Source: Ectocarpus siliculosus
Taxonomy: Eukaryota > Sar > Phaeophyceae > Ectocarpales > Ectocarpaceae
Direction: 5' to 3'
NCBI GenBank assembly: GCA_000310025.1
Contig: FN649727.1
Coordinates: 2,935,075-2,972,811, forward strand
Length of the DNA stretch: 37,737 nt
Under the pieces are notes generated by a model that was not told the origin of the DNA, did no database searches, and saw only the letters and a list, made by a program, of their open reading frames with translations. The position numbers were made by a program, and so were the translations under genes. Below are positions 6,872 to 34,574 of the stretch, one piece after another (the first letter of the stretch is position 1; each line of letters opens with the position of its first letter).

Positions 6872-7080
6872 GGCCCGTCTTCCCTGCAATGCCTGCAGTT
6901 GATCCTGGGAGCTGCAGAGCTACAATAGCTGTAGACTGAGAGAGCTATGGCCAAGATGTGTAGGTACCCTGGAATCCTAGTATCGAACCCCCTCGTGTAA
7001 CTCTCCGCACCCGCAGACCCCGCACACGCAGCCAGGTACCGGGGTGCACCGCTCCGCGCCTTGCTGCTGCTGTGCGTGCC
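6872..7080. promoter_or_regulatory. Divergent (head-to-head) intergenic region
   Basis: Only 209 bp separate the start codons of the minus-strand aminopeptidase and the plus-strand coiled-coil gene, so both 5' UTRs and core promoters must lie here or overlap the first exons. No TATA box is evident. The region has a small inverted motif, agctacaatagct. Shared regulation is inference. Confidence 0.5.
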
Positions 7081-16434: not shown

Positions 16435-17166
16435 GCTGATTTCGTCGTCAGCGAAGAAAAGAAAAGCATGCCAAAGGTGGGGCAGCTGGGCCACGTCGTC
16501 GTTGGTAAGTCCCGCTCTAGCGACATCTGCAGTTGCAGCTGTGCAAGCAAGTACACACGCTGCAGTTGCAGCTGTGAAAGCAAGTACACGCGCTGCAGTT
16601 TACCCGCATGGGGGCAACATGAGGCGGCATCCGTTTTCGGTATAGTCCTGAGGATGATGCAGATTGCGTGTGGCTGCTGAGGCTCTTCCTTCCCGTCTGC
16701 GAAATGGCAGGGAGGGCTTCAAATGACGCCGAGATGCGCTGTGTGTCTGACAGACAGCAAGTACAGGAGTAGCTCGGTGATTTTTTACCAACGATTTCTT
16801 CTCGGGTGGTGAACTCAGTCAACGACTGAAATTGGATTTTCTTTCAGCAGCAGCTTTCAGGTTTGTGCTGACCGCAGTTAGCACTCGGAGGTGTTGCCGG
16901 GTCACACCTTCGCGAAGCTAGATGACATATGTATGAATTCATACTGTTGCTATCGTTGTCCCATCACACCATGCATCGCCGGATTCAAATCAAAGGTGTT
17001 GCTGTAATGTGTAAAATGATTACAATATAGAGCCTGGTTGTTGTTTATTTTACCAGGAACTGCTGTCACTGCTCTTCTTCTTGAAGGACTTTCGAAACTT
17101 GCGCCGACACCTCCAGCAGGCCTTACCACATCAGTCATGATTCTTGTCATGTGCACCGACCAATGA
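16435..17166 (+). CDS. Putative small membrane protein, last two exons; 5' end unresolved
   Basis: Two exons fit: 16435-16504 and 17057-17166. The first has a good acceptor (atatcaacag) and a consensus donor (G|gtaagt) and encodes ADFVVSEEKKSMPKVGQLGH and VVV. The second follows ttttaccag, joins in phase, and encodes GTAVTALLLEGLSKLAPTPP, AGLTTSVMILVMCTDQ and a stop at 17164-17166. The hydrophobic runs suggest one or two membrane segments. I do not recognise the family. An upstream exon with the start codon must exist, and 15862 is only one possibility. Confidence 0.42.
16527..16600 (+). repeat. 33-bp tandem repeat, about 2.2 copies
   Basis: Units start at 16527, 16560 and 16593 with ctgcagttgcagctgtg and differ at two or three positions. 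The array lies in the proposed intron, 22 bp after its donor. One frame would read a repeated Ala-rich 11-mer (AAVQASTHAAV), but this is probably not coding. Confidence 0.8.
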
Positions 17167-18326: not shown

Positions 18327-18593
18327 TTTTATTTCTTCGACAGAGATGGATTCGCTGGGTCATACTGATGAAATGAAAAAAAACTTTCACCCACCACCAT
18401 GTCCCTCCCAACAGGGACATACGAGAGCTATAATAGCTCGTATCTGTAGGGATCTGATCTGTCCTATGCATATGTGTTCGTAGGTCTGGTGTTGTGGTTA
18501 GACTATGATGCAATACCTGCTGTGAACCAACCTCCCTTTCCTGTTGTTTGTTCCTGCGGCTGTCTGGTCCTGGCAGGTGGAGTGGTGGCCACA

Positions 18594-18672
18594 ATGTCTA
18601 GCGGTTTCGTCTCAGCACAGACGCCGATGATGGAGATTATTCTTCCCCTCTACCAATTCCCGTACTCCGACT
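18594..18672 (+). CDS. Spherulin-4/beta-helix gene, first recognised exon
   Basis: It encodes MSSGFVSAQTPMMEIILPLY then QFPYSD, the first beta strand of the spherulin-4 fold, and ends with T before gtgagt. The frame is open upstream and hydrophobic (CGCLVLAGGVVA), so a signal-peptide exon could splice in at the cag before 18577. The ATG at 18594 is a minimal start. Confidence 0.6.
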
Positions 18673-21600
18673 GTGAGTAAATAATCGACCTTGCCTGCTT
18701 ACGGCGACGGGGTGCAACTACAGTACATACTTGTAGGCTTCTTGGCTTAGCACCTGTTGTTGAGACGGTTATCACACAAAATGGTCAAGAAATTTACCTT
18801 CCTTGAGTCTGAAAATCTACTTTTTTCATTTATCTCCCAGCGTTTGACACTGCATGCCGCTGTATCGGAGTACCTGCTGTACGTGTATGCAGGAAACATG
18901 TATGGAGAGGCACAACTAGACTTGTCTTACGTAGGTGTGAATGCACACAAGGTTTGTACGAACAAGTTTTGTTGGCCAAAAATGAGCTACCTTGGTGTTA
19001 CATTTTCGAAGAAGGCCGCGAAATACCAGGAAAGTGTCTTTCCACCTGTATTGCTCGATTCGTGGGCTTGTGTTACGTGGCATTCCGCCTTGTTCTGTGA
19101 TGGTTGCTTGCGCTCGCTCTGTGAATGCGCCCAACTGGCGCCTCAACCACAACCGCACTCAGGTACCTTCTCTCCGGTATTCTTCTGCTGCCCTGCACTC
19201 ACGAAACAATTTGTCTATCATCTCTGTTTTGAGCATGAGAACATCTACGGTACCATTCAAAAGAGAGAAAGATTTGACGGTATTACTGCTGGTGCGTTCA
19301 ATGTTTCAACAGCACCTCCTGTCCTCCTCCACCACTTGAGAAGAACTTCGAATGCCACGCGATATACATGAAACAACTGAACAACAAGAACCAGCACCCC
19401 CCTATTTACACCCGTGCTTTGTATTCGTTGCGCGCCCATGGTCACGAACGACCGACCCCAAACAACAGTCCAGGTGGAGGCTCCCATGTGGGAGCAGCTG
19501 CTCGCCACCACGATAACCGGAACCCCGATTACGGCTATCCTGAACCCAATGAGCGGTCCCAACGTCGTTGACAATGACCTAGCTCTCTACAAGACGATCC
19601 TGAACACCTTCTTGAACCTTGGGGATGACCGAGCCGACCCCTCAGCCGACGAGCATGACTCGCTTACGGTACGCAAGTACCCTCAGACATCGGACTGGGG
19701 GATGACGTGCCCCAAGTTGTTGAATTTGTCACCAGTTGTTACGTGTCACACGTTTAAAGCGACAGCTTGAACCCGAGCAGGGGCAGGACTTTCTGCTCTG
19801 GCGTTGTCTGCGCCATGCAGTATGTGGTTGTGTTGGGTCTCAGGTGCCGAATGGGGGGGCGCATTGAACCCCACACACACAGCAAGTCCATTTTGCACGT
19901 TGAGGTAGGCGGCTAGCGCCTTGCTACTCATGATCGTGTTTCGAGGTACGTTAATCACTTCATGTAGACAAAACATGTTGTGTATTCGAGTGTAGGGCTA
20001 GATACGCTGCCATCAGGGAACTGCCAGAGTGCTCCATTGAACGCGCTTGTCCCGTTGGATCTCTCTCTAGGGCGCAAGTCATACAGCGCTGCACCACCCA
20101 TTCCGGTCCAGGACCGAAAGCCTCATATCATGTCCCCGAGACGCTGTGGTTACAGAGGAGGAGGCTTTCCCCCACTCTGCATGGATCCCATTGCAACTAA
20201 ACTTGCGACTGGTGCCCTTCTTCTCTCTCGCCCCACTTATCGCCACGCTGAAACACGCATCTCTCGTCCTTACTGCAGATGATTTGCTACGTGTCCACAG
20301 ACTATGGCGACAGGTCGGAAGACGAGGTCAACGCCGACATCGACCAGTATGAAACGGTGAGGGTACACGTTGGGACGGATACAAGCACGATTCCTTGGAT
20401 GGGCCAGCACACGCGAGCCCATGCAGACACCTCGTTTCATTACACTCCGTATTCGTTGAAAACTATCGGGGGGGGGGTGGATTTCGGAACATGAATACCC
20501 CTCCGCTTATATTATTTCTCGCAAACATAAAAGCACGAACGCGCTCGGAAATCGGTCGTGGCTGCCGGCTGTGCGTGAACCTCGGTCATGCTGTTAAAAC
20601 AGCCCATTACTACAACTTCCTCGCGTTGTGAGTGAATCACAAACGTGCACAACCTTTCCAAAAGATCTGTACCTAGCCAACAAGACGAAGGACACATGTT
20701 TGTTTCAGAGTCACTTCGTCTACATCAGCGCGCGACCCCCACTCTCCTCCCGCCGACCAAAGCCCACCGCCGAAGTTCAACTCCATGCGTGTACCGGAAT
20801 ACTTCAAAGACGGATCCACCCGCAGCCTCCGAGCGTTTGATTTCCTACTACACACGCTAACACCGTATTCGGTGTCAACCTGGGTTCCATGTCTATTGTG
20901 TTTTCGACCTTTTCAAGCCATTGTGTCTTCTTGTTTCGGAAATAACACCGAACGAATACAGAACTTTCCAGGGGTCTGCGACGGCATCTTTTTCGACGAG
21001 GCGCCCGCCGACATCACGGACGAGGGCGGCAACCCAACGGCGACGGGAGATCTCTACGAGAGGTACAACAACTACGTTGTGGAAAAAGAGTTTCCCGACA
21101 CGGAGGACCCGGTGAGGGCGAAGAGCTGGATGAGTCACTCGTCTTAGTTAGCGACGTAAAGCCAAGCTCACGTTCAAAGTGTCGAAGCTCATGACATCGC
21201 TTCTCACGGTCCGCCTCAAAACGCCGATGCTGTGCACGCAGCGGTAGGGAGTACGACGGCTTCATACGCTAATTTACCAACCCTGTGTATTTGTACCTGC
21301 GCGGTGTGCATGGGTGACGGGACCCGGCTTTCCATTTGACAGGGCCACGACTTGTCTGACACAACGACCCAGGCGTTGCTCTCACCGCGTCCTGCTGCAT
21401 GTCGCACCCTTTCCCTGCTTGGAAGCTCGATCCTGCGTCACATGCATCGACCAGTCAATGAACCCTTGGCGGTGTGTATTCCACTTTGATCTGTCTTTGT
21501 GCAGGACCTTTTGCAGGACCGGTCGTGGACGGTCACTTTCAACCCAGGAGGCGGCGTTGATCCTGCATACTTCGCCTTCAGTGGCAACCCCACCGTGATG

Positions 21601-24600
21601 AGCTACGAGAACTTCTATCGCGTGTGAGTGGTGTGATACGCGAGCGACAGCGCAACAGTGTAGTGTTGTAAGGAACAGCTGAACACCGGACAGTTGGAAT
21701 CCCCCGCAGGGCAATAATTCTCATGAACTCCTACTCCATCTGGAATTTTTCCACCTGACTCGTATGAGCAAAGAGTGTGCTTCAAGTGTATCACAAACGA
21801 AGCGACGTGTTTGCTGCTTGTGGCGCGCCTGCTTTGTGCGAGCGCGCAAGGATTTGAAGTCCCTTGCGGTACTTGAATTATGGTCGTGCCTGCCGAACGT
21901 GAAACGTTTGGTTAGCCGAGATGCCAATCAACCCATTACGCAACGTAAAACGGACGACCAGCTTCTGGTTCATTGTTGTGAAACGTAGCCTGGACCGCCG
22001 AAAACCCGGCGTTTCGCTCCTTCCCGGCTTGTAGGGAGATGCGAGGTCTTTGATCTACCGACGACGGGATGCCGGTCGTGACTGGTGTACCAGTCGGGAA
22101 GAAATCGTACGAGAAGGAGTCGATGCATTTGCGTGTGTTGCCCCCCCCCCCGCCGTGCACGCTATGGTCTAACGACTACGGCATGCACGACTATGAGTAC
22201 ACCCCCCCGCCGTGCACGCTGAACTGGCCGCCGCCACGCCGCCCGATTGGGATTGTCTGTGATCCATAGAATGAAGAACGTGGGCATGCCCAGGACTCCG
22301 TCGAGCGTCCTCGATCCTTCTCAACATGCGCTTGCCGTGCACACCACCTCGCCTGACCTAGACGGCAACACAGAGGTATGCCATCCAGCCATAATATTCC
22401 ATCGCTTATTACGGTTGGAACATTCGGGGAAAAAAGTATGTTGTAGACAAGAAATCAAAACCAGTTCGGGGCGGGGATCATTTGGTTGCTTGGCTGAGCT
22501 ATTCCGTTCGCACACCTCAGTGCCTTGGTTTCGATAACGATGATTTAATTGGATTCGATTGAAACGTTCTGATATATATGTAGAATGTTTCCTCTAGAGG
22601 TGGTCTTCTTCGAATATGGCGTGATCGGTTGAGAATTCGCTACCGACTACCTGGTATTTGATTACAAGGTTCGAGTTCTGTGGTTGTTATTTGATTACAA
22701 GTTTCGAGTTCTGTGGTTGACCAACAAGCGGTATAAAAGTAGTATTCTCGAGTCCTGTGTGGCGTACCGTTGTTTTCCTTTCGTCGCGTTTCAGGGCGTT
22801 GAGCACGATTCAACAACAAGCATTCGCCGACACGAGCGCTAGTTGCTGGTCGATCTCACGTCAAAGGAAATGCAGTTCCCGGAACCAAACTTCCTTCTTT
22901 GTTGATACCTACCTGCACACATACTGCATGCGTCCACGGTGTTTCAAGGGGCGGGGTATAAGTCCGGCCAATGATACTTTGTGCGATCTCCAGTGCCGTG
23001 TATATTTGTCCTCGCGCACGGCTCGTGCCCAGAGACGGCGTCCGAACCGACGGCACTCCCCAGCGATATGAAACGATTGCCCTTGTCGTTTCCACCCCGA
23101 CACCCGGCCGCGTGCGAGCTAGGAGACCCGCGCGCTCGTGGAGGCCATCGTGCAGGAAGCGGCGTGTTCCGGGTGGGGCAAGATCTACCTCACGAGCGAC
23201 TCCCAGGACCCTGGGTCGGACGATGGGGGCAACCCCTGGAACGTGTTGACGAACTACTGGGACACTCTTGTCGAGGCGGTGAAAGCGTACCCAACCCTTC
23301 CCCCGCCGAGCTGTTCGGGCCCGGAGATGGCCCTCATGGTGCCTGTGTGGTTGGCCGGAGAAGGTGCGCAGGCACTCGGCAGCTCACGATTGCAATGCTA
23401 GGGAGCCGGTATCTCGCGTGATCATGATTGAATGAAAGCGGTTGCTCGTCTCGCACAGACCACCCTCTCCTCGATCTCCACGGCGAGTACGCGGGAGTAT
23501 TGCGTGCTTGTGGCTGTGCATGCGACGCAGAGGTCGAGCTTACTTTTGCTGTGCACAGCTCGCCCATATGCGAAACACTCCTCCTGCTTTCGTCTCGATC
23601 CACCAACAATCACGAATAGCGTCACGAACAGACTATTACCAACTCCCGGTCTTGCCAGTGTAGCCGCCACCGTCCTTGTGCACGCGACGAACGGCGTCAA
23701 TGCCACCAACACTGTTGCTGCCGTTGTGCACTCCACACACACGTGGAAGCGACCTAAGGGACGCATGCATGCGTTTTACTTTGGTCGGCGCGGTTGGGTG
23801 CACTTGTGCCTGTATCGAATAAGCCTTTGATTTAGGTCCCGGTACAGCCACGGGAGACGGGGCGGTTGACGCGACAAGGTGGCTTCCAGATGCTCCCTGA
23901 CATCCAGTTCGGTCTTCGGTATCTCGCGTTTCGAAGTAAAACAATGAAAAATCGAAAAAAGAACGAAGATATCGAGCTGACTTCTCTTCTCCCGACATTG
24001 GCTTTTTTGTGGTGCACGCGCGGCAGCCTTGGAAGACGCGGTCGACGACGTGCTGGGTGTAGTGACGAAGAGCAACTTCTTGGAGGGTGGTGTAACGGTT
24101 GTTCTGGATGCTCGCGACGGCGACGGTACTAACCCGACTGCCACGCAGCTGCGTGATGCTGGCGCCAGGGTGAGCTTCGAGCTATCTCGCGTTACGGAGT
24201 ATGACAAATGAAAATATATGCATGTCAAGAATTGTGTTACTCTGTTACAGTAACTGTTGTTGTGGTGTTTCCTTCATTTCTTGCTGCTGTTGGTGGCGGC
24301 GGCGGTGGTAGCGGGAATCCTCTGTACCTGTGTTCGTGTGACCACGGTAGGCTGTCGTTGAGGACGCAAGAAAGCCTGGTCTACTTGCACGCAACGCAAC
24401 AGCCGTGCGTGGTAGAGTACGACTGTGCAGTTGCACTGGCTTCCAAGTGAGGCGGAATTAGAAAACCCCTTCACTTCAACGTGCGAGACGAAAACAGCTT
24501 GAACCCTCCACCTACCATCGGCAATCGAGCTGTTTGGTGGTGAGTTTCAGCGGGTGTGATTTTGCTGCCCCCCGAAAAATTCACCTGTACAACCGCCTCC

Positions 24601-24843
24601 GGCCCATTTTCATACCACGTATCATGTCGCAGGTCCTGTGCTACTTCGATTTCAACAGCTACACGGATGTTTACGACCTGATCGGCGAGCTCACTTCAGC
24701 CGACCCGCCGGCGGCTTTTGCCACGGAGGTCTGCGGCGGCTTGTATGTGGACAACTACTCCGAGTTCACGTTGAGCGCAGAGCAAAACATCTACGATCTG
24801 TACATAACTGTTCAGGTATGGGTGTGCTGCTGTCGTCGCTTCC

Positions 24844-24878
<35 letters not shown>

Positions 24879-27800
24879 TTGTCTTAAGAAGAACACAGGG
24901 TCACAATCGCATCAGCATAGGAGCTTCACAAACAAACCTGAGCCAGGTTTTCGTGTTCGAGTTGCTGGACTCAATTTGAGCAACCAAGCGACCACGCGAT
25001 GAGTGTTGTTCCTCCCCAAGTTCAAGTTCATTCCCAGTTTCACTTGGATCTCAACCAGCGTCGAAAAGCGTGCCGTTTGCGCTCGGTATTTGTTTCGGAC
25101 GTTGAGTCCAAAACAAACCGCGGAGTGTTTCCAATATCACGATGATGATGATGATGATGATGCCCTTCAGCTTGGACGGCGGACACCCCATGCCTTCGAC
25201 GCTTCACTTTCGCGACCGGTGTTGTCCCTCTCAACTCATGTCTCTCTCGGTTTCCTCCTCGACGTCCCAGAACGTGATTCCGCGCGGCATGCTGGTTATC
25301 GATTACGAAGACCCGGACGTCCAGCTGTTCGACCTGTACGCGAAAGATTGGACCGAGGTAAGCTGTGGATGATGGTTGCGAAATACTAGTGCAAATGATA
25401 AGGGGTAAGGATGCAACTACGCCGCCGGGCTAAGGGGACCTCCAACACAGTACATTTTGATGTATCTGGCATCCACGGGGGTGTGGAGTGCTCACGGTGA
25501 TTGTAAACCTTGACAAAACGGAACGATTTGAGCGACAAACTTGTATGATCTTCGGAGCAATTCACAGTGACCAAGGAGGGCACCTTGGTCTGAATTGTAC
25601 GGACAAGACTCGCCATCGATGTACCACGCTGGTGTGTCTACAAGCGAGGTGTTCGCTAATGCACGAATATTGAAATGGTTCTCGACACGCCAGTTATACT
25701 ACTACCTGTCGAAAAATGGAACACCAATCTTGGAGGCAGGGTTAGAAAACCCTCACACTCGTCTCTCAAGCTTGTCGTCAGGAACCGAGTCCATCCAGAT
25801 ATTTCGAGTTCGACACCAAAGCCGGAGCACCAAGGCTGGAGAGCTGTAAAAAACATCATGTTCATCAAGGTAAAAACGCCTACTCCCCCCTCACGTACAC
25901 CGCCTGCATGTTTTTAGTGCTCACCGAACGCGACAACTGGTATCGAACGCAATGCCAGGTTTCCTTCCAAGAGGGGCGGGTGGTCGTGGCTACTAGGGTC
26001 GAAGCTACGACCCCATTCGCCGTCCCCGATCTTAACAACGACAACGCCACTCCGCAAAACTCGGCCCTGATCGTCACTGGCTTCACGGAAACCACCGCCG
26101 AGGTAACCTTTCTTTAAGGCCTTGTTGAGACGTGTGTCCTTCCGTGGAAGAATCCGTCCATCCACAAGGAAGGGTACACACTATGTACACCTGTGTTACA
26201 CCGCTAGAGAGGCCGACTGCTCCCCCTCTCAACGAACCTGCATAGGTTGTTGAGCGCGAAGTCGCCTTCCCCTCCTACCCGCACCCACGACGGATCACAT
26301 TTACATCTCTCGTTTCCTCCGTGTTTCTTGGAAAGTTGTTGTCCTCATCACGTCGCCTTCCCCTCCTACGCGCACCCGCGACACGTCACATTTACACCTT
26401 TCGTTTCCTTCGTGTTTCATGAAAAGTTGTTGTTGTCCTCATCACCGCCTTTACGCCTTCTGCGATTTCTGCGAACCGCTTCCGACCTTGCCGCCGCACA
26501 GGCGCAAGAGGTGGAGTGCCTGCTCGCCGAGATGAAGGAAACCTTCGGGTACGGGTTCGTCACGGGTGTCCTCGACCCCCCCGCCGAGGCAGAAACCGCC
26601 ACCGTATACTTGGACCGATTGCACTCGGAACTTGATGTGAGTGTGTGGCCGCCCGTTCTCGTTGTACGTAGTGGGCTAGAGCGGGCGCGAAGCGCGACGG
26701 GCAACAGATTGCCAAGACGGTGGTGGCGCTCTTGAATTAGGGATTGCGATGGCCACAGAACACGAGAATAGAGAGGGGGAAGAGAGGCTTCAAGTCAGGC
26801 ACACCAGAAATTCAATGAGCGCCCGAACGTCGGCGGTGTCTCTAGTTCCGAGTAGAGCAGTGCTCCGTTTTTTGAGAAGGCCATGCGTGGTCAATGATTT
26901 AACCACGAAGGCCAGAAACACGTCACCCCCCCCACACCCCTCCTTCTCCTCTTTCCACCCTTCCCTACCCGGGTCCTGCCGGGTGTTCGCGAACAAATTG
27001 ATACCGTACAAGTCTCCCTTATCCCCTTTCGCCGCCGGAGCAAGACGAATCACCCGTCGGGATCGCCACGACTCATCTCTTTTCCTCCCCGCTTGCTATG
27101 TGCCGTGCTTGACTTCCTCTCCGCACCGCTATTCCGCCGCCATGGAACCCAGGACCCCACCATTACGGTCGAAAGTTGCGACGCCCCTGAGCCGGTGAGA
27201 AGTGTGGTATCAACGCGATCGACAAGTTTGCTGCGCGGCAGCATATGGGCACGGGGTTGGTTGACCGTAGTAGACCAGCATGCCTTGGCTACAGCAGATA
27301 GTGTACCCTAACGTTTTTTTTTGTTTGGGGAAATGATGTTGTTCGTCGCGCGGGAAGGCGCAGGTCGAAGGCGTCGTTATTGAATCGTTGCTAGATTGGT
27401 ACACGTCACGACGAACAAATTCCGCAACAAATTGTGAGTTGCACGTGGTTGTTGCACAACTTGTATATCCGGATCATCCCCGGTTTAAAAATTGGCCTCG
27501 TCGCTTCACCCCCCCCCCCCCCCCCTTTTTCGTCGCGTGGCAACGACGTTGTAAAACAAGCCCCCCACTCGGTGTTTGCCATCGGGATTGGGTTTTCGTC
27601 GCTTGGCAACGACGTTGTAAAACAAGCCAATTCACTTCGTGAACTCGGCAACCAGGTTACCGTCTTTTTTTTTTACCTCTGGTTTTTTTTTTGGCGGTAA
27701 CCATAATGGTGGTCGAGTAGATCATGTTGTGCGGGGTCGAGAAACCTCACTCCGCGCAACGGGGGATGATCGCACCACGTTGTGTTAAAATGGTCAAGCT

Positions 27801-30800
27801 TCCTCGAGGCAGTTACACAGTGCTTACAACTGTCTCTGGAAGTGAAAGCACCAGAAAATAAATTAAGTCATACGTAGCTGTCATCCGTACGCAAGGAAGT
27901 AAGCACAAGATGCCGAACACCCTTAGCAGGATGCAGCTCACCCTTCATGCGACTCGCCAAATACCTCACGGCGCTTCGCGCTTGGTGATGTGAGAGCCTG
28001 GTCCGGTGAGAACCCGGCGTGCTCCGTCCCGGCTTTGTAGGGATGCGAGGTCAATGGTCAAACGACTACGGCATGCACGACTATGAGTACACCCCCCCCC
28101 CCCCCTCCTGCCCCCCCTTCTCAACGCTCTCCTATTCCCACCACCACCTCGTCCTAATGTTCGTTGCTGTCGCTCCGACCCGGTGGTTAGCAGGTGACCT
28201 CGGCTTGCGGTTCAGATGGTGCGGCCGAGTTGACATGGCTCAGCAGCAGCCGCAAGATTCGCGTGAGGAATGGGGGCTGCGCAGACATGGCCAGGATCTT
28301 CGCCGAACTTGTACTCGAGGGCGTCGCTGGCGAAGGCATCACGACCGGTTCACCCCTTCGCGAGGTTGCCATGTTTTTGTCAAAAGCTTGTGTCTCTTGC
28401 CTCTCTGCTGTTGATCGTCGAATGCGCCCATTCTGTACTATAGTAACAGCAGCGGTCAGAGCGGATGCATAACCACGCGTGGCAGGGGACATGCGACGGG
28501 AGAGCTCGAGAGCCGGGGTGATGAAACCATTGCCTTGCGCTTCTAGTTGCTGTCTTTTTCGCAGAAATATTTGAATTGTGGTGTGCGCTGCGTCGGCATG
28601 CTGGGTTGTGTATGTTTCTCAGCCCTAGGTCACAAAATGTAAACATGACTACTCTCGCATTTCGCTTTAAAATCACCACATTTACAAACGGTGCTCTCAT
28701 ACATACATGCACCGGTGGACCGTTCCGCACGCAAAGCAGACTCGTTCGTCGGGCCTTCTTATTTCCTTTCTGGGTGAATCGAGCTGCAGTCTGCCACACA
28801 CGGGACACGTTCTTGATCCTCACTCCCCCCTTCTGTTAACTTCACACCCCCGAGAGAACATTGATTCGTCCTTTGGGAAAACTCAACAGCTCGGCCGTAT
28901 GCCACGACCCGTTTCTGACACAGATTCTGTGACTGATTGTGGATGTTGTTCGGACTTGTTCGAGGCCCGTGTGAGCTTCGCCCCTCTATGAATCGCATAT
29001 CCATATCGACGACGCCGCCGCAATCGTTCGACCAGGTGGAACCCGGAGTGTGGCAGCTCGACGCCACCATCGACGTCCAGGCCGGCTCTGTCCTGAAGAT
29101 TGTGGGGGAGGTGAGAGATCACACCCGCTTCGTGGAACAGGCATATGGCTCTCAATAGTTCGGCAGCACTAAGTGAGAGTCCCGCCTACCCGAACTCTTT
29201 CGGAGGTGCGCGTGTGCATGCTATCGTGACCGCGACATAATTTCCTCCAATGCACACAAAAAACAAGGCATAAATACATGTTTCGTAGAATTTTAGGTTC
29301 GCTAGGCTCGACATGCTTACAATGTGCGTAGGTGTTTTGCCTGGGTGTTTCATGTTTCGTCGGGTGCATAACTCCCCCCTCCATCACACGGGCGCGCCCG
29401 CCTTGCCCCTTGACTACTGTACCTCTCACCCGTTAACCGCCCATCCATCCGACTCAAGGATGGTCTCGGCGAGTGCAACGAGCTTCGCCTCCTCACCGAC
29501 TCCACCGACGGCAAGAGAACCAGGGTTCTGGGAAACAGAGGGGACATCGTCATCCAGAACACCAAGGTTTGTGCCATGGCGTTGGGTCCTGCTTTGTTTT
29601 TCTTCTCGGAACACGATACAGCAGCTACTCGAGCATTCGTCCATCGATCTTTCTTGCTAGGCAAGCATCGCTTTTGACGTTCTTGGCTTCATCTTGTCCT
29701 TTAGTGTCTAACCCTGGCTCTTGCAAGAACTTCACCTATTGAAATGTTGCACGAGTTGAATGTCTTTCACCGACCAACCATAGATCGCTCACATGGCATC
29801 CAATCAGGCATTCCCTCGGTAAACCCGAGGAAGCAATTCAGAGGGAAATCTTCCGACTTCGGGCGGGCACCAAGCGAATTCGCCGGACAGCGCATGAGCA
29901 TTTGCCAAGGGTTGGCACAGAAAGCGCCTCTGGATAGAGATCACCGGGAGTATGCTACCCACTCGTGTGTCCTTGGTTATGATTTGGGAAAGAAGGCACG
30001 GTTGCACCCGTTCCATTACCAACAACCTGATATTTATCTTTGTTCTGCCCAAGGATACTTGGGCCGATTAGTGCATGAACGAGCCGTGGCATCAGTCAAT
30101 AACCGGTTTTCCCTGTCCAGCCATATCTGAAATCCCGACGCTATTTTGGTGTACTGTCTTGCTGTTTCGTTTCGCCTTGTCTTGCCTGTCGTTCGTTTTA
30201 CATGGGGGCTAAAACAGATCGTCGGGTGGAAGAGCGACGAAAACGCGCCTGATACAACGGACAGCACCAATCGCGGGTACATCTTGTGCAGCTCCTGCCC
30301 TGGGACATGTATGTACCCGATCCCCATTCCGGCCTTTCACTTACCGTCGCTCGATACCACCATTTCTAAAGTCGATACGTTCGATTGCGCGTGAACATTC
30401 TTTAAAGTCTCGGGACGTATGCGACGGTGCGCAAATCGGCGAACCGCTGCAGGCCCCAGATTCGCGTTTGCGGAACGATTCGCAGCCGGATTTCCCGAGA
30501 AACGTCCTCCGCGCGCAACCTTTGGCGTTGCCTAGTAGCACTTCGTTGATGGTCTTTCTCCAGACTTGATCACGGCAGTCCAGTAGGTCGTTTTGGCGAG
30601 GACGGGCATCAACAACCCGACAGTAGCAATAGGGCTGTAGGATTCAACTTGATGTTTTCGCGGTGGTCAACCGGAAGCTGACTTCCCCACGGGCTCTGAG
30701 ATGTGGCATGGAAAACGACACCAGGAACCATTCCCAAGAGGGACACCAGCCTCGTTACCGTTGTTTTGGTTGCGTGCCCCTGCAAGACAGAAAGAAACAA

Positions 30801-33800
30801 CAGCACATTGTGCCTGCTAGCACATAGAAACCTTCAAACACGCCGTCGACGCGATCGATCGAAACGGTTTCAGGGCGCCGGTGGTACAAAATAGTGTTAT
30901 TATAGTAGCCTTTTCGAACACAACGGTCAGCACCGGCTAGCCGTTGTATCGGCCGTTGTGTCGCATTGGTATGGCGTTTTATACCGAAGGCAACTTGACG
31001 AAAAGAGTATGAAGTAACGACGATGTCCAACGCGCATGATTTGTTTTTCAAAGCAGCGACCGACCAGTGCGTAATGAGTGTGACGGACAGCGAGCTCTCG
31101 TACCTTGGAGGGGGGGGGACGAACACCGGTGGCTTAGCGTGGAAGGTACGTGTTTCATTGTTCCCACGAAACCCCCCCAGAAAAGGAGAGCGTCCGAGAT
31201 CGCGGTACACGGTGCTCTGATGTTTTTTTACTGGTGTTGTTTGGGCCAAGATGTTGTCTGTATGAGAAGCGCCAATGCGGTTTGTTCAGTGATATCAGCG
31301 GTGTTCCGCCACGTTGCTGACACCGACTGATACAGCCTTGGGGGTATGTTTGGTTTTGATTAATACGAGGACAGCGGCAGCTTGTCGAAGAAGAGAATAC
31401 ACCGAGTGAGTGCATGTAGAGACGGCGACGCGCGCGTACACCATTCCGCTGTCGTCAACTTATCTTGGGTGCCCTCTTGCCGCTCTCGAAGTTGGTGCTC
31501 GTTCCAACCTAGAACGTCAAGCCCTACTCATTCCCAGTACCTTGAAGTTCTGAGGGCTTGTCGTGGCCCACGTTTCCGATTGCTTGTTCATGCGGAAGCC
31601 TCTACCGCCATGCTGTAGACGCAAGATGCTGGCGAAAAGTGATCGCTGTAATACTTGGGGCGCGGTCCACCCCGCCCCGACAGGGCTAAGCATCGAGAGA
31701 ATCTTCAACCAGGCTGTCTATCGTCTTCCACACTATTGCGGTTCTTCATTAATTTATGCGCTACTCCTGTCGCCAGCATCGATCACTAATGTTTTCTCTC
31801 GTGCACATGAAGCCGGATGTCGTGTTGTACCGCCGTTGTACCACAGATGATCCCCCTAGTAAAGCAAGCTTGATATGTCCTCTTCTATGCATACAATCCT
31901 CGTCTATTGTTTCTTTGTGTAGTGAAGCCTGGTCACCGTTGTTGATTGTGGCTGCTACTTTTGTCTAACGGTGTGCTGCCTTCCAGGACCTCTGCAGTTC
32001 ATCGGCGACGGCCACGGCCCGGGGCCTGACACTCACAGGCAACCGCCGGGGAATTTGTGAGTTCTGTGCAACTCTCACTCGCGCCAAGAAACACAAGTGT
32101 CGGGGGTTTTGGCGGCGTATGTATGTATGTGAACACCAGAAGGTTCTCGTTGGTGATTTCAGTGCTTTGCCAACTTTCACGCAGTATTTTTTAGCTGCGT
32201 CTAGATTTTTGGGAGTTCCATATCTCGCGAGTACTGAAATCGCAAGTCCGCAATACTTGTGTGATCTTGAGAAGCCGAAATCAAACCATCAGACTAGTCA
32301 GCGCTGGCTAGTCTAATGGTTTGATTTCGGCTTCTTTCTATAGATCGCATAGCCGCAATGATAAGGCATTCGGTCATCCAGAGAGCAAACGCTTTCTGTG
32401 CGGGGTGGTCCTTGCTGTTTCTTGGAATAATTTCCTTTCGGTGACGAATCCAGCCACGAGCTCTGTCTGAGTTGAAACGCGGACGCAACTAACACAAACA
32501 ATTCAGACTCGAGGAACGGACGGTGCTCCTTTATGTTAACCGATCCCACGAAGAGTTTCACGGCATGTCAATGTGTATGTATCTGAAGAAACTCCCCATG
32601 TCCTTTTTGGACTCTTTGCTTCTCGCTGTGGGGGGAATGATGTTGCGGCGCCGTTTTCGCCTCATCGGACATCAAAATGATGGTACGGCGATCAACGATG
32701 ACGGCATCATCATCAACGGCAATAACAATACTGTGGACGGACCGGAGCGAAAAGACGCAAGAGGGGCGGTCCTGGACTTCGATGATCTCGATATCACGGG
32801 TAGCGTCAAGGAGGGCGTTCGCGTCGACTCGTGCTCAGGCCACGTCAAGGGTGAGTGTTGAGGTACGCAAGACTACACACAGGTAGTAGGCATTGAATGG
32901 GACTGAAGAGGAGACACGGTGAGTGGCGGGTGATGGACTGGATCAAGAATGGCATACCTTGTTGACAACGCCAAGTATTAAACATTACTGTATATAAGAG
33001 CATCGAACATTTGAAGCCCCTCCCCCCTCATTTTCCGCGTTGCACACATGAATACATTTGAAGGAAGTAGTAGACATGACATACTCCAAACCGCAAAAAT
33101 TCGTCAGCCGGTTCATGCGTTATTTACATGCCCACTCATGCCCGTCGTCAACAGTCCGGGAATTCGCTACTTCAAGGTACACATGCGAGGCTGGTTGGTC
33201 CCTTCTAGAACGCTGGGGTCAGTGGCGCCGGCCGGGATCAACCGCTCTCGGCACAGCCTGTCTACGCAAGACTCTGCTGTATCGACACAAGCTTTGCGCT
33301 GTTTGACCTCATTTTTCCAGATAGCACCGTCGACCAGGAGGACAGCTCGGCGTGGGCCATCTTCGTACAGCGACCCGACGGCACTGAGGTGAAACGCCCC
33401 AGCTACATACTTCGAAGTGTGTTTAGCTGCATCTTTCGGGAAGTTTAAACAACCGAAGTCGGTTGGCAGCAGCGCGTGGTCTTTGTATTCTCGAGTTTTT
33501 TTGCGCGTTCCGCAGGGCCTCGTACCAGTTGGCTGAGTGAGGGCTACAGTGCGCGTTGTGAATAGGTCGATAATCTCGTCATTTTCGCGTTTTTTTCACG
33601 TTCTTGTGATAGTGTTACGTCCTGTTCGTAGTGTCTGCTATAGCAGTATTATACGATCAAGGCGTATCCTCTGTCCGTTGTATGGCGCCATCAACATTGT
33701 AGGCCTGTTGCGATCCTCCCACCACCACCCACATTATTACCTGCTGTACACAGGTCAGCGGAAACCAGATAACGGGCAGCAAGAGCTTGATCCTGAGGGA

Positions 33801-34574
33801 TGATCTTGAGGGTGGCGCCTCGCCGACCGTGAACAGCAACACGATTCAAACGCCCACGCTCACCTCCGTTCGGTGAGAAAAGAACGCCTTCAACGCTGTA
33901 CGTTCATCTCGACATCTGGGGTGGTGCGATTTCGGCCCGGTTTCGTTCTTTTACTCGCTTTCGCTGGGCAGAATGTCGTTCGGTGGAGGTAGTGTTCCCC
34001 GCGGACGATGCCCGGTTGTTTTTGCTGTTCGACTCTTAATAACGCCATGCATGAAGATAAGACTTCACCCAATACTCTGCGCTCTTTTTCAGTGACCCTC
34101 TCGTTTGCGTCTGTCTCCCCTTGATCATGATGTGGTCACGTTTGACTCAATTACGTAGTACATGACATGACATGACATGACATGTACAACTGACAGAACA
34201 ATCACCACAACGTCTGCCTTCGGCCACGTGGTATACTTCGCACAGGAGAAAACTCGTTGTATTGTGCGTGTTTCGCAATGAGGAACAAGATAGCGGGAAG
34301 AGATTTAACTCGGTAGGTAGCGACTCTTGCTGACTCTGGTCGACTACAGTATTGCCCCGCCGTCCGTCCGTCCGTCCATCCACCCACCACCCCTTTTCTC
34401 CTCAGCGTCAGGACGGCCAACACACACTACAGTGGAAACAGTGGGGACGGGAGATGCGACGGCTGCTCAAGGATTGGCCTTGTCGCGTCGAGCACCGGGT
34501 GTTTCACCCAAGATTCAGCTTCGAGCGATTCCGAGGTCGACGCCTACATCACCGATCAACAATGTGCTCTTTGA
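18594..34574 (+). CDS. Large multi-exon protein: tandem spherulin-4-like domains fused to a right-handed beta-helix
   Basis: Exons in order: 18594-18672 (5' end uncertain), 19469-19668, 20279-20356, 20763-20790, 20972-21111, 21505-21621, 23123-23363, 24027-24169, 24633-24815, 25271-25357, 25771-25869 (uncertain), 25959-26102, 26502-26636, 27153-27194, 28194-28364, 29036-29110, 29459-29566, 30218-30308, 31054-31145, 31987-32056, about 32589-32850, 33321-33388, 33754-33872 and 34412-34574. Nearly all reading phases agree. Domain 1 carries the spherulation-specific family 4 pattern (ILPLYQFPYSD, ILNPMSGPN, CYVSTDYGDRSEDEV, CDGIFFDEAP, GWGKIYLTSD). Domain 2 repeats the pattern in divergent form. 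A Cys-containing linker follows, then beta-helix rungs with TDSELSYLGGGG and VSGNQITGSKS. The hydrophobic N-terminus suggests secretion. Function is unknown; a polysaccharide-related role is inferred from the fold families. I treat it as one gene because no stop codon intervenes between phase-matched exons, but a split into two genes is possible. Confidence 0.68.
19469..19668 (+). CDS. Spherulin-4 domain 1, exon with NPMSGP motif
   Basis: The joined codon T|TC gives SDFQVEAPMWEQLL, then TPITAILNPMSGPNVVDND. It ends LT before gtacgc, phase 0. Confidence 0.82.
20279..20356 (+). CDS. Spherulin-4 domain 1, exon with CYVSTDYGDR motif
   Basis: Strong acceptor ccttactgcag, then MICYVSTDYGDRSEDEV and NADIDQYET, donor gtgagg, phase 0. 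It matches the family segment G-Y-V-x-T-x-Y-G-x-R plus the D-I-x-x-Y helix. Confidence 0.85.
20763..20790 (+). CDS. 28-nt microexon in spherulin-4 domain 1
   Basis: It encodes PTAEVQLHA plus the first base of Trp. The pyrimidine-rich tract ctctcctcccgccgaccaaag precedes it and gtaccg follows. It is the only segment I found that repairs the phase between the flanking exons, and the result aligns with domain 2 (PPAAFATEVCGGLYVDN). Confidence 0.5.
20972..21111 (+). CDS. Spherulin-4 domain 1, exon with FFDEAP motif
   Basis: Encodes WVCDGIFFDEAPADITDE then LYERYNNYVVEKEFPDTEDP; donor gtgagg. F-D-E is the conserved acidic motif of the family. Confidence 0.85.
21505..21621 (+). CDS. Spherulin-4 domain 1, exon with FNPGG motif
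   Basis: Encodes DRSWTVTFNPGGGVDPAYF then NPTVMSYENFYR. Two in-phase acceptors exist, 21505 and 21517. The gtgtga donor at 21622 is used because the stronger gtgagt two bases later breaks the frame of the next exon. Confidence 0.75.
21988..22226 (+). repeat. Dispersed intronic repeat, copy A
   Basis: It shares cggcttgtaggga-gatgcgaggtc and cgactacggcatgcacgac plus tatgagtacac with copy B 6 kb away. A second tatgagtacac-like C-rich end is part of copy A. It has no coding frame common to both copies. Confidence 0.65.
22655..22720 (+). repeat. 33-bp tandem duplication
   Basis: Two copies of tatttgattacaag(g/t)ttcgag and following bases occur at 22655 and 22688. A TATAAAAG-like octamer lies just downstream at about 22732. 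Confidence 0.8.
23123..23363 (+). CDS. Spherulin-4 domain 1, final exon
   Basis: Encodes ETRALVEAIVQEAACSGWGK then IYLTSD, NPWNVLTNYWDTLVEAV, and a Pro/Cys linker ending VPVWLAGE before gtgcgc, phase 1. It aligns with the C-terminal helix-strand-helix of spherulin-4 proteins. Confidence 0.78.
24027..24169 (+). CDS. Spherulin-4-like domain 2, first exon
   Basis: Encodes ALEDAVDDVLGVVTKSNFLE then GVTVVLDARDGDGTNPTATQ and LRDAGAR. VTVVLDARDGDGTNP corresponds to ITAILNPMSGPN of domain 1. Donor gtgagc, phase 0. Confidence 0.75.
24633..24815 (+). CDS. Spherulin-4-like domain 2, second exon
   Basis: Encodes VLCYFDFNSYTDVYDLIGEL, then VCGGLYVDNYSEF and NIYDLYITVQ. CGGLYVDN replaces the CDGIFFDE of domain 1, so the acidic pair is lost. 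Donor gtatgg. Confidence 0.8.
24846..24880 (+). repeat. GTT-rich microsatellite in intron
   Basis: Imperfect then perfect (gtt)n / (gat gtt) run directly after the domain-2 exon donor. Confidence 0.85.
25141..25162 (+). repeat. (GAT)n microsatellite in intron
   Basis: Seven perfect gat/atg units upstream of the exon at 25271. Confidence 0.85.
25271..25357 (+). CDS. Spherulin-4-like domain 2, third exon
   Basis: Pyrimidine-rich acceptor (cctcctcgacgtcccag), then NVIPRGMLVIDYEDPDVQLF and DLYAKDWTE, consensus donor gtaagc, 29 codons, phase 0. Confidence 0.78.
25771..25869 (+). CDS. Spherulin-4-like domain 2, uncertain exon
   Basis: Two phase-consistent readings exist. From 25771 the frame reads LVVRNRVHPDISSST and ends WRAVKNIMFIK, joining 25959. 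From 25782 it reads EPSPSRYFEFDTKAGAPRLE and would join 25918. Both use the gtaaaa donor at 25870. It may also not be an exon. Confidence 0.35.
25959..26102 (+). CDS. Spherulin-4-like domain 2, fourth exon
   Basis: Encodes VSFQEGRVVVATRVEATTPF and NSALIVTGFTETTAE, donor gtaacc, phase 0. The alternative acceptor tttttag at 25917 would add LTERDNWYRTQCQ. Confidence 0.75.
26261..26445 (+). repeat. 91-bp tandem duplication in intron
   Basis: Two units, from 26261 and 26352, each begin gtcgccttcccctcctac and end ttgttgtcctcatcac, with scattered substitutions. Confidence 0.8.
26502..26636 (+). CDS. Spherulin-4-like domain 2, last exon
   Basis: Encodes AQEVECLLAEMKETFGYGF, VTGVLDPP and VYLDRLHSELD before gtgagt. 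It parallels ALVEAIVQEAACSGWGKIYL and the NYWDTLVEAV helix of domain 1. Confidence 0.8.
27153..27194 (+). CDS. Linker microexon
   Basis: It encodes the 14 residues DPTITVESCDAPEP between a gaacccag acceptor and a gtgaga donor, phase 0 on both sides. Confidence 0.55.
27526..27628 (+). repeat. Duplicated 36-bp segment after a 17-C run
   Basis: ttttcgtcgc(g/t)tggcaac followed by gacgttgtaaaacaagcc occurs at 27527-27562 and 27593-27628. The run of C at 27509-27525 precedes it. Confidence 0.8.
28000..28108 (+). repeat. Dispersed intronic repeat, copy B
   Basis: This is a shorter version of copy A: the gagaacccggcg, gtagggatgcgaggtc and cgactacggcatgcacgac modules, ending in a C-run. Confidence 0.65.
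28194..28364 (+). CDS. Cys-containing linker exon before the beta-helix
   Basis: Acceptor gttagcag, then VTSACGSDGAAELTWLSSS and RKIRVRNGGCADMARIFAEL, ending TTGSPLRE. The in-frame donor GAG|gttgcc is weak, so the 3' boundary is approximate; the frame stays open to 28472. Confidence 0.55.
29036..29110 (+). CDS. Beta-helix N-terminal cap exon
   Basis: Encodes VEPGVWQLDATIDVQAGSVL and KIVGE, the entry strand seen in many right-handed beta-helix proteins (V-W-x-L ... I-x-V-x-x-G-x-x-L). Donor gtgaga. The frame is open upstream, so an earlier acceptor, for example before 28978, is possible. Confidence 0.7.
29459..29566 (+). CDS. Beta-helix exon
   Basis: Encodes DGLGECNELRLLTDSTDGKR and VLGNRGDIVIQNTK; acceptor gactcaag, donor gtttgt, 36 codons, phase 0. 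Confidence 0.72.
30218..30308 (+). CDS. Beta-helix exon
   Basis: Encodes IVGWKSDENAPDTTDSTNRG and YILCSSCPGT, ending with T before gtatgt. The W-x-(S/T)-x-D...P-D pattern is typical of this helix family before the exposed-turn region. Confidence 0.75.
31054..31145 (+). CDS. Beta-helix exon with DSELSYLG motif
   Basis: T-rich acceptor (gtttttcaaag); T|CA gives Ser, then ATDQCVMSVTDSELSYLGGG and TGGLAWK before gtacgt. DSE-x-x-YLG followed by G-L-x-W-K is characteristic of the group. A run of nine G encodes part of the Gly stretch. Confidence 0.82.
31987..32056 (+). CDS. Beta-helix exon
   Basis: Acceptor tgccttccag, DLCSSSATATARGLTLTGNR then RGI and the first base of a codon, donor gtgagt. Confidence 0.65.
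32271..32334. repeat. Near-perfect 27-bp hairpin in intron
   Basis: Left arm 32271-32297 (gaagccgaaatcaaaccat, c, agactag) pairs with right arm 32308-32334 (ctagtct, a, atggtttgatttcggcttc), with one mismatch and a 10-nt loop. It could be a tiny inverted-repeat insertion or a hairpin RNA source. Confidence 0.85.
32589..32850 (+). CDS. Beta-helix exon with repeated GIIINGNNNTVDG rung; 5' boundary uncertain
   Basis: Encodes FRLIGHQNDGTAINDDGIII, NGNNNTVDGPERKDARGAV, LDFDDLDITGS and EGVRVDSCSGHVK, then G before a strong gtgagt donor. The frame is open from 32493. No acceptor in 32057-32600 restores the phase left by the previous exon, so a short exon is missing from this model or the 5' edge differs. 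Confidence 0.6.
33321..33388 (+). CDS. Beta-helix exon
   Basis: Acceptor catttttccag; the joined G|AT gives DSTVDQEDSSAWAIFVQRPD and GTE before gtgaaa. Confidence 0.78.
33754..33872 (+). CDS. Beta-helix exon
   Basis: Acceptor gctgtacacag, VSGNQITGSKSLILRDDLEG and SPTVNSNTIQTPTLTSV, ending CG before gtgaga. Confidence 0.78.
34161..34184 (+). repeat. (CATGA)n microsatellite
   Basis: Four to five perfect units of catga in the last intron of the spherulin-4/beta-helix gene. Confidence 0.85.
34412..34574 (+). CDS. Last exon of the spherulin-4/beta-helix gene
   Basis: CG|G gives Arg, then TANTHYSGNSGDGRCDGCSR, a Ser/Asp-rich tail and AYITDQQCAL, stop TGA at 34572-34574. Four Cys in this exon suggest disulfides in a secreted protein. 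Confidence 0.72.

What the first reader, a model, noticed from the sequence alone, without database searches (positions are those of the whole stretch)
18594..34574. Fusion of two spherulin-4-like domains with a right-handed beta-helix
Directly seen: phase-matched exons carry spherulin-4 motifs (ILNPMSGPN, CYVSTDYGDR, DGIFFDE, GWGKIYLTSD), a second divergent copy, and then beta-helix rungs ending at one stop codon. Known: spherulin-4 domains are usually single small secreted proteins, and beta-helices are common in polysaccharide lyases and epimerases. Inference: this is a composite secreted protein acting on, or anchored in, cell-wall polysaccharide. I am not aware of this architecture being described.
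Basis: partly seen in the sequence, partly recalled or inferred. Interest (0 to 1): 0.8.

Follow-up and report, generated by a model that had tools for sequence, protein, structure and literature searches.

The report
Sugar-cutter fused to alginate-epimerase remnant
A seaweed-like genome carries what looks like one long gene joining a galactosaminidase-type sugar-cutting enzyme, a second diverged enzyme-like barrel and part of an alginate-modifying epimerase without its active-site motif, which suggests a hydrolase held in the algal wall.

Summary
The exon chain is real: 23 exons (18594-34574, +), 940 codons, one stop, 22 of 22 GT donors, 21 of 22 AG acceptors, GC3 0.75 against intron GC 0.52. 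Domain 1 is a full-length Spherulin4/GH135 domain (PF12138, E=1.5e-39) that keeps three residues invariant in 24 of 24 prokaryotic relatives. Domain 2 is a diverged, unassigned stretch, similar at the same weak level to GH135 and GH114 profiles. 'Second spherulin-4 copy' is not proven. Exons 14-18 are homologous to the N-terminal half of the genome's mannuronan C5-epimerases (hhalign E=1.1e-16, 0 of 60 shuffles), with two identical intron positions. The catalytic DPHD motif was not found. The last 201 residues are unassigned, and a beta-helix fold is not directly shown: no Pfam helix match. Best reading: a GH135-type hydrolase tethered to wall polysaccharide by an epimerase-derived, non-epimerising module. 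Weak points: no transcript, no resolved signal peptide, no canonical acceptor at exon 20. One of 27 prokaryotic GH135 proteins scanned, from Parcubacteria, also joins a beta-helix to GH135, in reverse order.

The parts
18594..18672 (+). Exon 1 (phase out 1): ATG to LPLYQFPYSD, start of GH135 domain; true 5' end uncertain
   Evidence: an AG before 18577 suggests that the exon may begin there after an upstream signal-peptide exon
19469..19668 (+). Exon 2, GH135 (AILNPMSGPN)
20279..20356 (+). Exon 3, GH135 (MICYVSTDYGDR)
20962..21111 (+). Exon 4, GH135 (VCDGIFFDEAP; Asp and Glu invariant in 24 of 24 prokaryotic relatives)
21505..21623 (+). Exon 5, GH135 (FNPG, SYEN; Glu invariant in 24 of 24)
22294..22375 (+). 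Exon 6, GH135 (HALAVHTTSPDLDGNTE)
23123..23363 (+). Exon 7: end of GH135 (GWGKIYLTSD...NPWNVLTNYW) and start of domain 2 (EMALMVPVW) in one exon
24027..24169 (+). Exon 8, domain 2
24633..24815 (+). Exon 9, domain 2 (VLCYFDFNSYTD, VCGGLYVDN)
   Evidence: resembles both GH135 and GH114 motifs
25271..25357 (+). Exon 10, domain 2
25959..26102 (+). Exon 11, domain 2
26502..26636 (+). Exon 12, end of domain 2
27153..27194 (+). Exon 13, 14-residue linker (DPTITVESCDAPEP)
   Evidence: in phase, consensus splice sites; short, so weak coding evidence
28194..28364 (+). Exon 14, start of epimerase-derived module
   Evidence: hhalign to the ManC5-E profile begins at residue 4 of this exon's product
29036..29110 (+). 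Exon 15, epimerase-derived module
29459..29566 (+). Exon 16, epimerase-derived; its 3' junction (NTK|, phase 0) is identical in 3 of 6 ManC5-E paralog loci
30218..30308 (+). Exon 17, epimerase-derived module
31057..31145 (+). Exon 18, epimerase-derived; its 3' junction (WK|, phase 0) is identical in 5 of 6 ManC5-E paralog loci
31987..32056 (+). Exon 19, unassigned C-terminal part
32671..32850 (+). Exon 20, unassigned, repeat-like (DDGIIINGNNNTVDG); acceptor is a non-canonical AC in this model
33321..33388 (+). Exon 21, unassigned C-terminal part
33754..33872 (+). Exon 22, unassigned C-terminal part
34406..34574 (+). Exon 23, last exon with the only stop

Best explanation
One gene encodes a composite protein of about 940 residues. 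The N-terminal domain is a GH135-type retaining endo-hydrolase for alpha-1,4-linked N-acetylgalactosamine-type polymers, catalytically competent by its conserved residues. The second domain is a diverged relative of the GH135/GH114 barrels, of altered or lost activity. The C-terminal module descends from the N-terminal half of the algal mannuronan C5-epimerases, without the catalytic half and its DPHD motif. It probably does not epimerise but keeps some affinity for uronate chains and so holds the hydrolase in the alginate wall. Shown: the exon chain, the GH135 homology and conserved residues, the epimerase homology of exons 14-18, and that no DPHD motif was found. Inferred: one transcript, secretion, activity, substrate, alginate binding.
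For: 23 exons in phase, 22 of 22 GT, 21 of 22 AG, GC3 0.75 vs intron GC 0.52. PF12138 full length, E=1.5e-39. D119, E120 and E192 (domain numbering) kept and invariant in 24 of 24 prokaryotic rows; the FFDE motif also lines up with Sph3 chains 5c5g and 5d6t. Exons 14-18 versus ManC5-E: BLASTP E=4e-13, hhalign E=1.1e-16 with 0 of 60 shuffles, NCBIfam AlgG E=6.2e-4, far below that model's cut-off. Two intron positions and phases as in paralogs (3 of 6 and 5 of 6 loci). No DPHD-like motif in six frames over 26.6-35 kb. PMC11468063 states that all its brown-algal ManC5-E carry DPHD (section 6 read).
Against: No transcript evidence. Exon 20 has no in-phase AG acceptor. No resolved signal peptide (three weak candidates). 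Domain 2 is weakly related at best: against the GH135 profile without domain 1 it scores 22.5, and one of 100 shuffles or more reached up to 23.3. The shared epimerase half is not the part that matches AlgG structures or Pfam Beta_helix, a profile of that half finds no AlgG chain, and none of five paralog halves matches NCBIfam AlgG, so that it binds alginate is a guess. The last 201 residues are unassigned. The one search for a galactosaminogalactan-pathway family, Agd3, found nothing but had no ringing control.
Confidence: 0.45

Rival explanations
1. Two neighbouring genes: a GH135-type protein (exons 1-12) and an epimerase-like protein (exons 13-23), wrongly chained.
For: The stretch 26637-28193 holds only a 42-nt exon, and the epimerase homology starts right at exon 14. 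AlgG-type epimerases are normally stand-alone enzymes (recalled).
Against: Consensus splice sites in phase 0 across E12|E13|E14. No signal-peptide-like first exon in 26640-28180 by a crude filter. Exon 12 has no stop at its donor; read-through meets one only about 100 nt further on.
Confidence: 0.2
2. A decaying gene: the composite was once functional but is now a pseudogene, as shown by the missing catalytic motif, the diverged second domain and the broken exon 19-20 junction.
For: Non-canonical acceptor at exon 20; the one in-phase AG (at 32553) would create a stop with exon 19. Catalytic motif not found.
Against: No other frame break in 940 codons; GC3 stays high in the late exons (0.62-0.86); domain 1 catalytic residues intact.
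Confidence: 0.15
3. Domain 2 is a GH114-type barrel, so the protein couples a hydrolase for acetylated polymer (GH135) with one for deacetylated polymer (GH114), the pair that fungi encode side by side.
For: Only PF03537 appears for domain 2 (E=0.028). Local alignments to two of five algal GH114 proteins exceed all 300 shuffles. By eye it has a DN after its presumed nucleophile as GH114 does, not DE as GH135 does. Passages of PMC11356417 describe the fungal pair in one cluster.
Against: Below the Pfam cut-off (14.1 vs 27). Profile score about equal to GH135 with domain 1 (25.6 vs 25.4). The other three of five algal GH114 proteins do not stand out (15, 32 and 118 of 300 shuffles). The acid residue is not clearly kept. 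The intron directly before the CY motif is shared with domain 1 and not seen in the algal GH114 genes.
Confidence: 0.15

Closest known systems
Sph3 / spherulin-4 family (CAZy GH135, PF12138), PDB 5c5g and 5d6t
   Same: Full-length PF12138 match; FFDE motif lines up with Sph3; D, E and E kept as in 24 of 24 prokaryotic relatives
   Different: Sph3 is described as one (beta/alpha)8 barrel (passages); here the domain is followed by a second stretch and an epimerase-derived module
Mannuronan C5-epimerase of brown algae (paralog on contig C16 matches AlgG 4nk6 at E=3.5e-19)
   Same: Exons 14-18 align over 163 columns with the N-terminal half, with two identical intron positions
   Different: No DPHD motif found; the catalytic half is missing or unrecognisable
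GH114 endo-alpha-1,4-galactosaminidase (PF03537, Ega3); this genome has 22 exon matches at E<=1, 14 over the cut-off
   Same: Weak match of domain 2
   Different: Below the family cut-off; the C-terminal GH114 motifs (NEQC, vEY) are not seen by eye
Parcubacteria protein L034 (930 aa): beta-helix (DUF1565; Pel9A-like below cut-off) + Spherulin4 + Big_7
   Same: Combines a right-handed beta-helix with a GH135 domain
   Different: Reverse order, other helix family, a bacterium; no second barrel matched

Membership tests
GH135 / Spherulin4 (domain 1) | PF12138 match above curated cut-off over the full profile | tested here: met
   136.4 bits vs cut-off 30.2, profile 1-239 of 239
GH135 / Spherulin4 (domain 1) | Catalytic Asp and Glu and neighbouring Glu | tested here: met
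   D119, E120, E192 invariant in 24 of 24 prokaryotic rows. FFDE lines up with 5c5g; the later Glu is not paired by phmmer there, but is by hmmsearch with the 24-row profile
GH135 / Spherulin4 (domain 1) | Hydrolysis of alpha-1,4-N-acetylgalactosamine polymer | not testable with these tools
   needs recombinant protein
GH135 / Spherulin4 (domain 1) | (beta/alpha)8 barrel fold | not tested
   no structure was predicted
GH135 / Spherulin4 (domain 2) | PF12138 match above cut-off | tested here: not met
   no match at E<=1
GH135 / Spherulin4 (domain 2) | Common descent with domain 1 | tested here: inconclusive
   global 1 of 500, local 60 of 500 shuffles, exon-to-exon none of seven; hhalign 25.4 vs shuffle maximum 22.1 of 100 with domain 1 in the profile, but 22.5 vs 23.3 without it; 4 of 6 domain-1 junctions have a same-phase counterpart (judged by eye)
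GH114 (domain 2) | PF03537 match above cut-off | tested here: not met
   14.1 bits vs 27
Mannuronan C5-epimerase (C-terminal module) | Homology to the family | tested here: met
   exons 14-18 only: E=1.1e-16, 0 of 60 shuffles
Mannuronan C5-epimerase (C-terminal module) | DPHD catalytic motif (His/Asp) | tested here: not met
   not found in six frames, 26.6-35 kb (a motif split by an intron would be missed); present in the six of seven paralog proteins whose sequence reaches this site
Mannuronan C5-epimerase (C-terminal module) | Right-handed beta-helix | tested here: inconclusive
   no Pfam or PDB match; last 201 residues no better than shuffles; shared half finds no AlgG chain; no structure predicted

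The most novel reading that the evidence does not exclude
The alga has reused a piece of an alginate epimerase, without its catalytic motif, as an anchor in the alginate wall and hung a galactosaminidase on it: a wall-bound antifouling enzyme that cuts the alpha-galactosamine exopolysaccharides (fungal GAG, bacterial Pel) that hold microbial biofilms on the algal surface. PMC12054363 describes the substrates of GH114, GH135 and GH166 as fungal and bacterial exopolysaccharides (passages), and PMC11356417 reports that Sph3 can digest biofilms (passage).
Probability: 0.17. Interest if true: 0.85.

Novelty: new variant of a known kind. Interest (0 to 1): 0.52.

Why it matters
It would show an epimerase-family module reused without its catalytic motif, which surveys that take DPHD as the mark of the family could miss. 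It would also put a GH135 enzyme into a brown-alga-like genome, where the main text of the 2024 survey mentions GH114 but not GH135 (supplements not seen). If it cuts microbial exopolysaccharides, it is a testable mechanism of seaweed surface defence. The parts are separable by exon and can be expressed and assayed apart.

Tried and rejected
Two independent proteins: rejected for domains 1 and 2, which share exon 7. Exon 20 acceptors: one search lists five AGs in the open frame upstream of exon 20 (32506, 32513, 32553, 32555, 32588). Only 32553 is in phase with exon 19, and it makes TAG with exon 19's last base (worked out). A missed DPHD exon: none in six frames. PF12138 in the own genome found nothing, but none of its 14 control genomes rang and exon-by-exon search may not reach it, so this is uninformative. 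Plasmid tblastn with domain 1 and with domain 2: no match. Viral contigs with domain 1: two pattern matches, no relative; with the C-terminal part of the C16 epimerase: none. Agd3 (PF25116): none, no ringing control. 'Scone' PDB hits: ignored as irrelevant repeat proteins. NCBIfam gave domain 1 no family at E<=1.

Rows dropped: seven of 34 prokaryotic loci were first read in a wrong frame and were left out of the Pfam scans; they match the GH135 profile in the right frame. The GH135 alignment used 24 of the 34 loci. The GH114 profile used nine sequences (five bacterial, four algal). The epimerase profile was given seven paralogs, of which hhalign kept six. Searches were script errors, redone. 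One search used a wrongly placed exon 20; its exon table was redone, while its motif and first-exon scans stand.
Full report
What is in the sequence. I rebuilt the gene exon by exon on the + strand and corrected the last part. The model has 23 exons from 18594 to 34574, 2,823 nt, 940 residues and one stop at the end. All 22 donors are GT; 21 of 22 acceptors are AG. GC at third codon positions is 0.75, against 0.52 for introns, and every exon has GC3 between 0.62 and 0.86. The window lies in a 189-Mb genome (G000, contig C2). It holds 74 matches at E<=0.001 to a mannuronan C5-epimerase, the query itself included, and 22 exon matches at E<=1 to GH114, 14 of them over the cut-off. Both fit a brown alga: PMC11468063 gives on average 27 epimerase genes (section 6) and 5 GH114 genes (passage) per brown algal genome. 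That the genome is a brown alga is my inference; no call names it.

Domain 1. Exons 1-7 give a full-length PF12138 (Spherulin4) match, profile 1-239 of 239, 136.4 bits against a cut-off of 30.2, E=1.5e-39. Spherulin-4 is CAZy family GH135, described as retaining alpha-N-acetylgalactosaminidases with a (beta/alpha)8 barrel (passages of PMC12054363; PMC11356417). phmmer finds the two solved Sph3 chains only weakly (5c5g E=0.032, 5d6t E=0.041). The GIFFDE motif lines up there; the later Glu of Sph3 falls in an insert of a non-significant second piece. A scan of prokaryotic genomes returned 34 related loci. In an alignment of 24 of them (22 bacterial, 2 archaeal by record title) with domain 1, the Asp and Glu of FFDE and the later Glu (SYEN here, mostly FE there) are invariant in 24 of 24 and kept in domain 1; a profile of the 24 alone scores domain 1 at 101 bits. 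PMC12054363 prints the Sph3 pair as Asp196/Glu222. The 56-residue spacing that I count in chain 5c5g fits Asp166/Glu222, which I recall, so the printed 196 may be a misprint.

Domain 2. Exon 7 ends domain 1 and starts the next stretch (EMALMVPVW), so the two are joined inside one exon. Pfam gives domain 2 no PF12138 match at E<=1 and a sub-threshold PF03537 (GH114) match, E=0.028. Against domain 1 the local alignment score is reached by 60 of 500 shuffles and the global one by 1 of 500. Seven exon-to-exon comparisons give nothing (best 37 of 1000). hhalign scores are 25.6 against a nine-sequence GH114 profile and 25.4 against the GH135 profile that includes domain 1; the maxima of 100 shuffles are 20.5 and 22.1. 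Against the GH135 profile without domain 1 it scores 22.5, below the shuffle maximum of 23.3. So a relation to these barrels is likely but not firm, and which family cannot be told. Local single alignments favour GH114: two of five algal GH114 proteins beat all 300 shuffles, the other three do not (15, 32, 118). Of 24 GH135 proteins, three beat all 150 shuffles globally and none locally. The intron layout favours domain 1. Four of its six internal junctions have a counterpart of the same phase: E1|E2 with E7|E8 (phase 1), E2|E3 with E8|E9 (phase 0, directly before the CY motif), E4|E5 with E9|E10 (0), and E6|E7 with E11|E12 (0). E3|E4 has none, and E5|E6 (phase 2) differs. Correspondence was judged by eye on a weak alignment. 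The algal GH114 genes show no junction before CY but do have one near the E9|E10 place. By eye the FFDE of domain 1 becomes YVDN in domain 2, so the GH135 Glu is lost.

C-terminal module. A search of G000 with exons 14-23 found a distant relative on contig C16 (28% identity, E=1.8e-6). Its 782-residue open frame carries YGFDPHDDS, and residues 161-380 of its epimerase region match AlgG chains (4nk6, E=3.5e-19); it also has Pfam Beta_helix (E=3.7e-16). Between the two, BLASTP gives E=4e-13 over residues 5-178 of the module, 26% identity. A profile of paralogs (seven given, six kept) gives hhalign E=1.1e-16 for the first 178 residues, with 0 of 60 shuffles as good. NCBIfam gives AlgG at E=6.2e-4, far below that model's cut-off. 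Spliced alignment of six paralog loci shows common intron positions. The NTK| junction (phase 0) occurs in three of six and the WK| junction (phase 0) in five of six; both are exactly those of exons 16|17 and 18|19. The other junctions differ or are only near. The DPHD motif was not found in six frames over 26.6-35 kb. PMC11468063 states that all its brown-algal ManC5-E sequences have it. The last 201 residues are no better than shuffles against the epimerase profile (32 of 60). They look repeat-like (DDGIIINGNNNTVDG, SGNQITGS) by eye only.

Is the module a beta-helix? Not shown. It has no Pfam match at E<=1 and no PDB match (best E=0.37). The half that it shares with the paralogs ends about where their AlgG match begins. 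A profile of that half from five paralogs finds no AlgG chain (best E=1.1, unrelated), and none of the five matches NCBIfam AlgG.

Is it one gene? The critical stretch is 26637-28193. A 42-nt exon (27153-27194) bridges it, with consensus sites in phase 0. No signal-peptide-like first exon passed a simple filter there. This supports one gene but does not prove it. The 5' end is open: exon 1 as drawn has no evident signal peptide; an AG at 18575-18576 and one of three weak upstream candidates (16468-16504) could supply one. The exon 19-20 junction is the model's flaw: of five AGs in the open frame upstream of exon 20 only 32553 is in phase, and it would create a stop, so I used an AC (32669-32670). 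A missed small exon, an assembly error or decay are all possible.

Distribution. Of the 34 prokaryotic loci I scanned 27 in-frame proteins against Pfam (8, 10, 9); all 27 have one Spherulin4 stretch and none has two. One, the Parcubacteria protein L034, has a beta-helix (DUF1565 over its cut-off, Pel9A-like below it) before its GH135 domain. So a beta-helix has been joined to GH135 in a bacterium too, with another helix family and the other order. In G000 the only other trace of domain 1 is a single weak exon on contig C9 (38% identity, E=0.03; PF12138 E=0.016, below cut-off). No other match to domain 2 was found at E<=1.

How it most likely works. Domain 1 cuts an alpha-1,4-GalNAc-type chain; domain 2 shapes or extends the site or is inert; the epimerase-derived module holds the protein on alginate. 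All three steps are inference. The protein is strongly acidic (151 D+E against 52 K+R), which would suit a cationic substrate or a calcium-alginate setting. Whether the substrate is the alga's own or a microbial exopolysaccharide is open; the substrates named in the passages that I saw are fungal and bacterial.

Novelty. No held paper has both 'spherulin' and 'brown algae'. 'GH135' does not occur in the main text of PMC11468063 (supplements not seen). The listings (20 of 83 papers; 20 of 25; 11 of 11; 12 of 14) show no such architecture in title or start of abstract; passages of PMC8307928 mention epimerases and WSC-domain proteins but not this. The library holds only open-licence papers. I file it as a new variant of known kinds: known families in a combination that I have not seen described, with one module lacking its catalytic motif.

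Noticed in passing
window 32057-32670: The intron between exons 19 and 20 has no usable in-phase AG acceptor; an AC fits in phase. Possible missed exon, assembly error or decay.
   Followed up: partly
window 1682-2071 and 2499-2888 (- strand), 1721-2080 and 2538-2897 (+ strand): Near-identical open frames repeated at a spacing of 817 bases, which looks like a recent tandem duplication of about 0.8 kb.
   Followed up: no
window 26261-26433: 91-bp tandem repeat, 1.9 copies, inside the intron before exon 12.
   Followed up: no
window 6497-6919, - strand: Exon with a creatinase/prolidase N-terminal domain (PF01321, E=1.5e-9); an Xaa-Pro aminopeptidase is my guess.
   Followed up: no
window 9853-11034, + strand: 393-residue open frame that looks coiled-coil-like, no Pfam match at E<=0.01.
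   Followed up: no
L003 (G000 contig C8), - strand: An epimerase gene with DPHD lies beside frames with cysteine-rich repeats resembling WSC domains (recalled, not scanned), so epimerase modules may be fused to other domains elsewhere in this genome.
   Followed up: no
G000 contig C26, about 5095-5107 kb: Several GH114 exon matches close together, probably a tandem gene cluster.
   Followed up: partly
L034, 488-3277: Parcubacteria protein with a beta-helix, a GH135 domain and a bacterial Ig domain: an independent beta-helix/GH135 joining.
   Followed up: partly
G000 epimerase paralogs (L001, L003, L038, L040, L041): The N-terminal half of the algal epimerases, upstream of the AlgG-like part, matched no solved chain and no NCBIfam family: a conserved region without assigned fold here.
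   Followed up: partly
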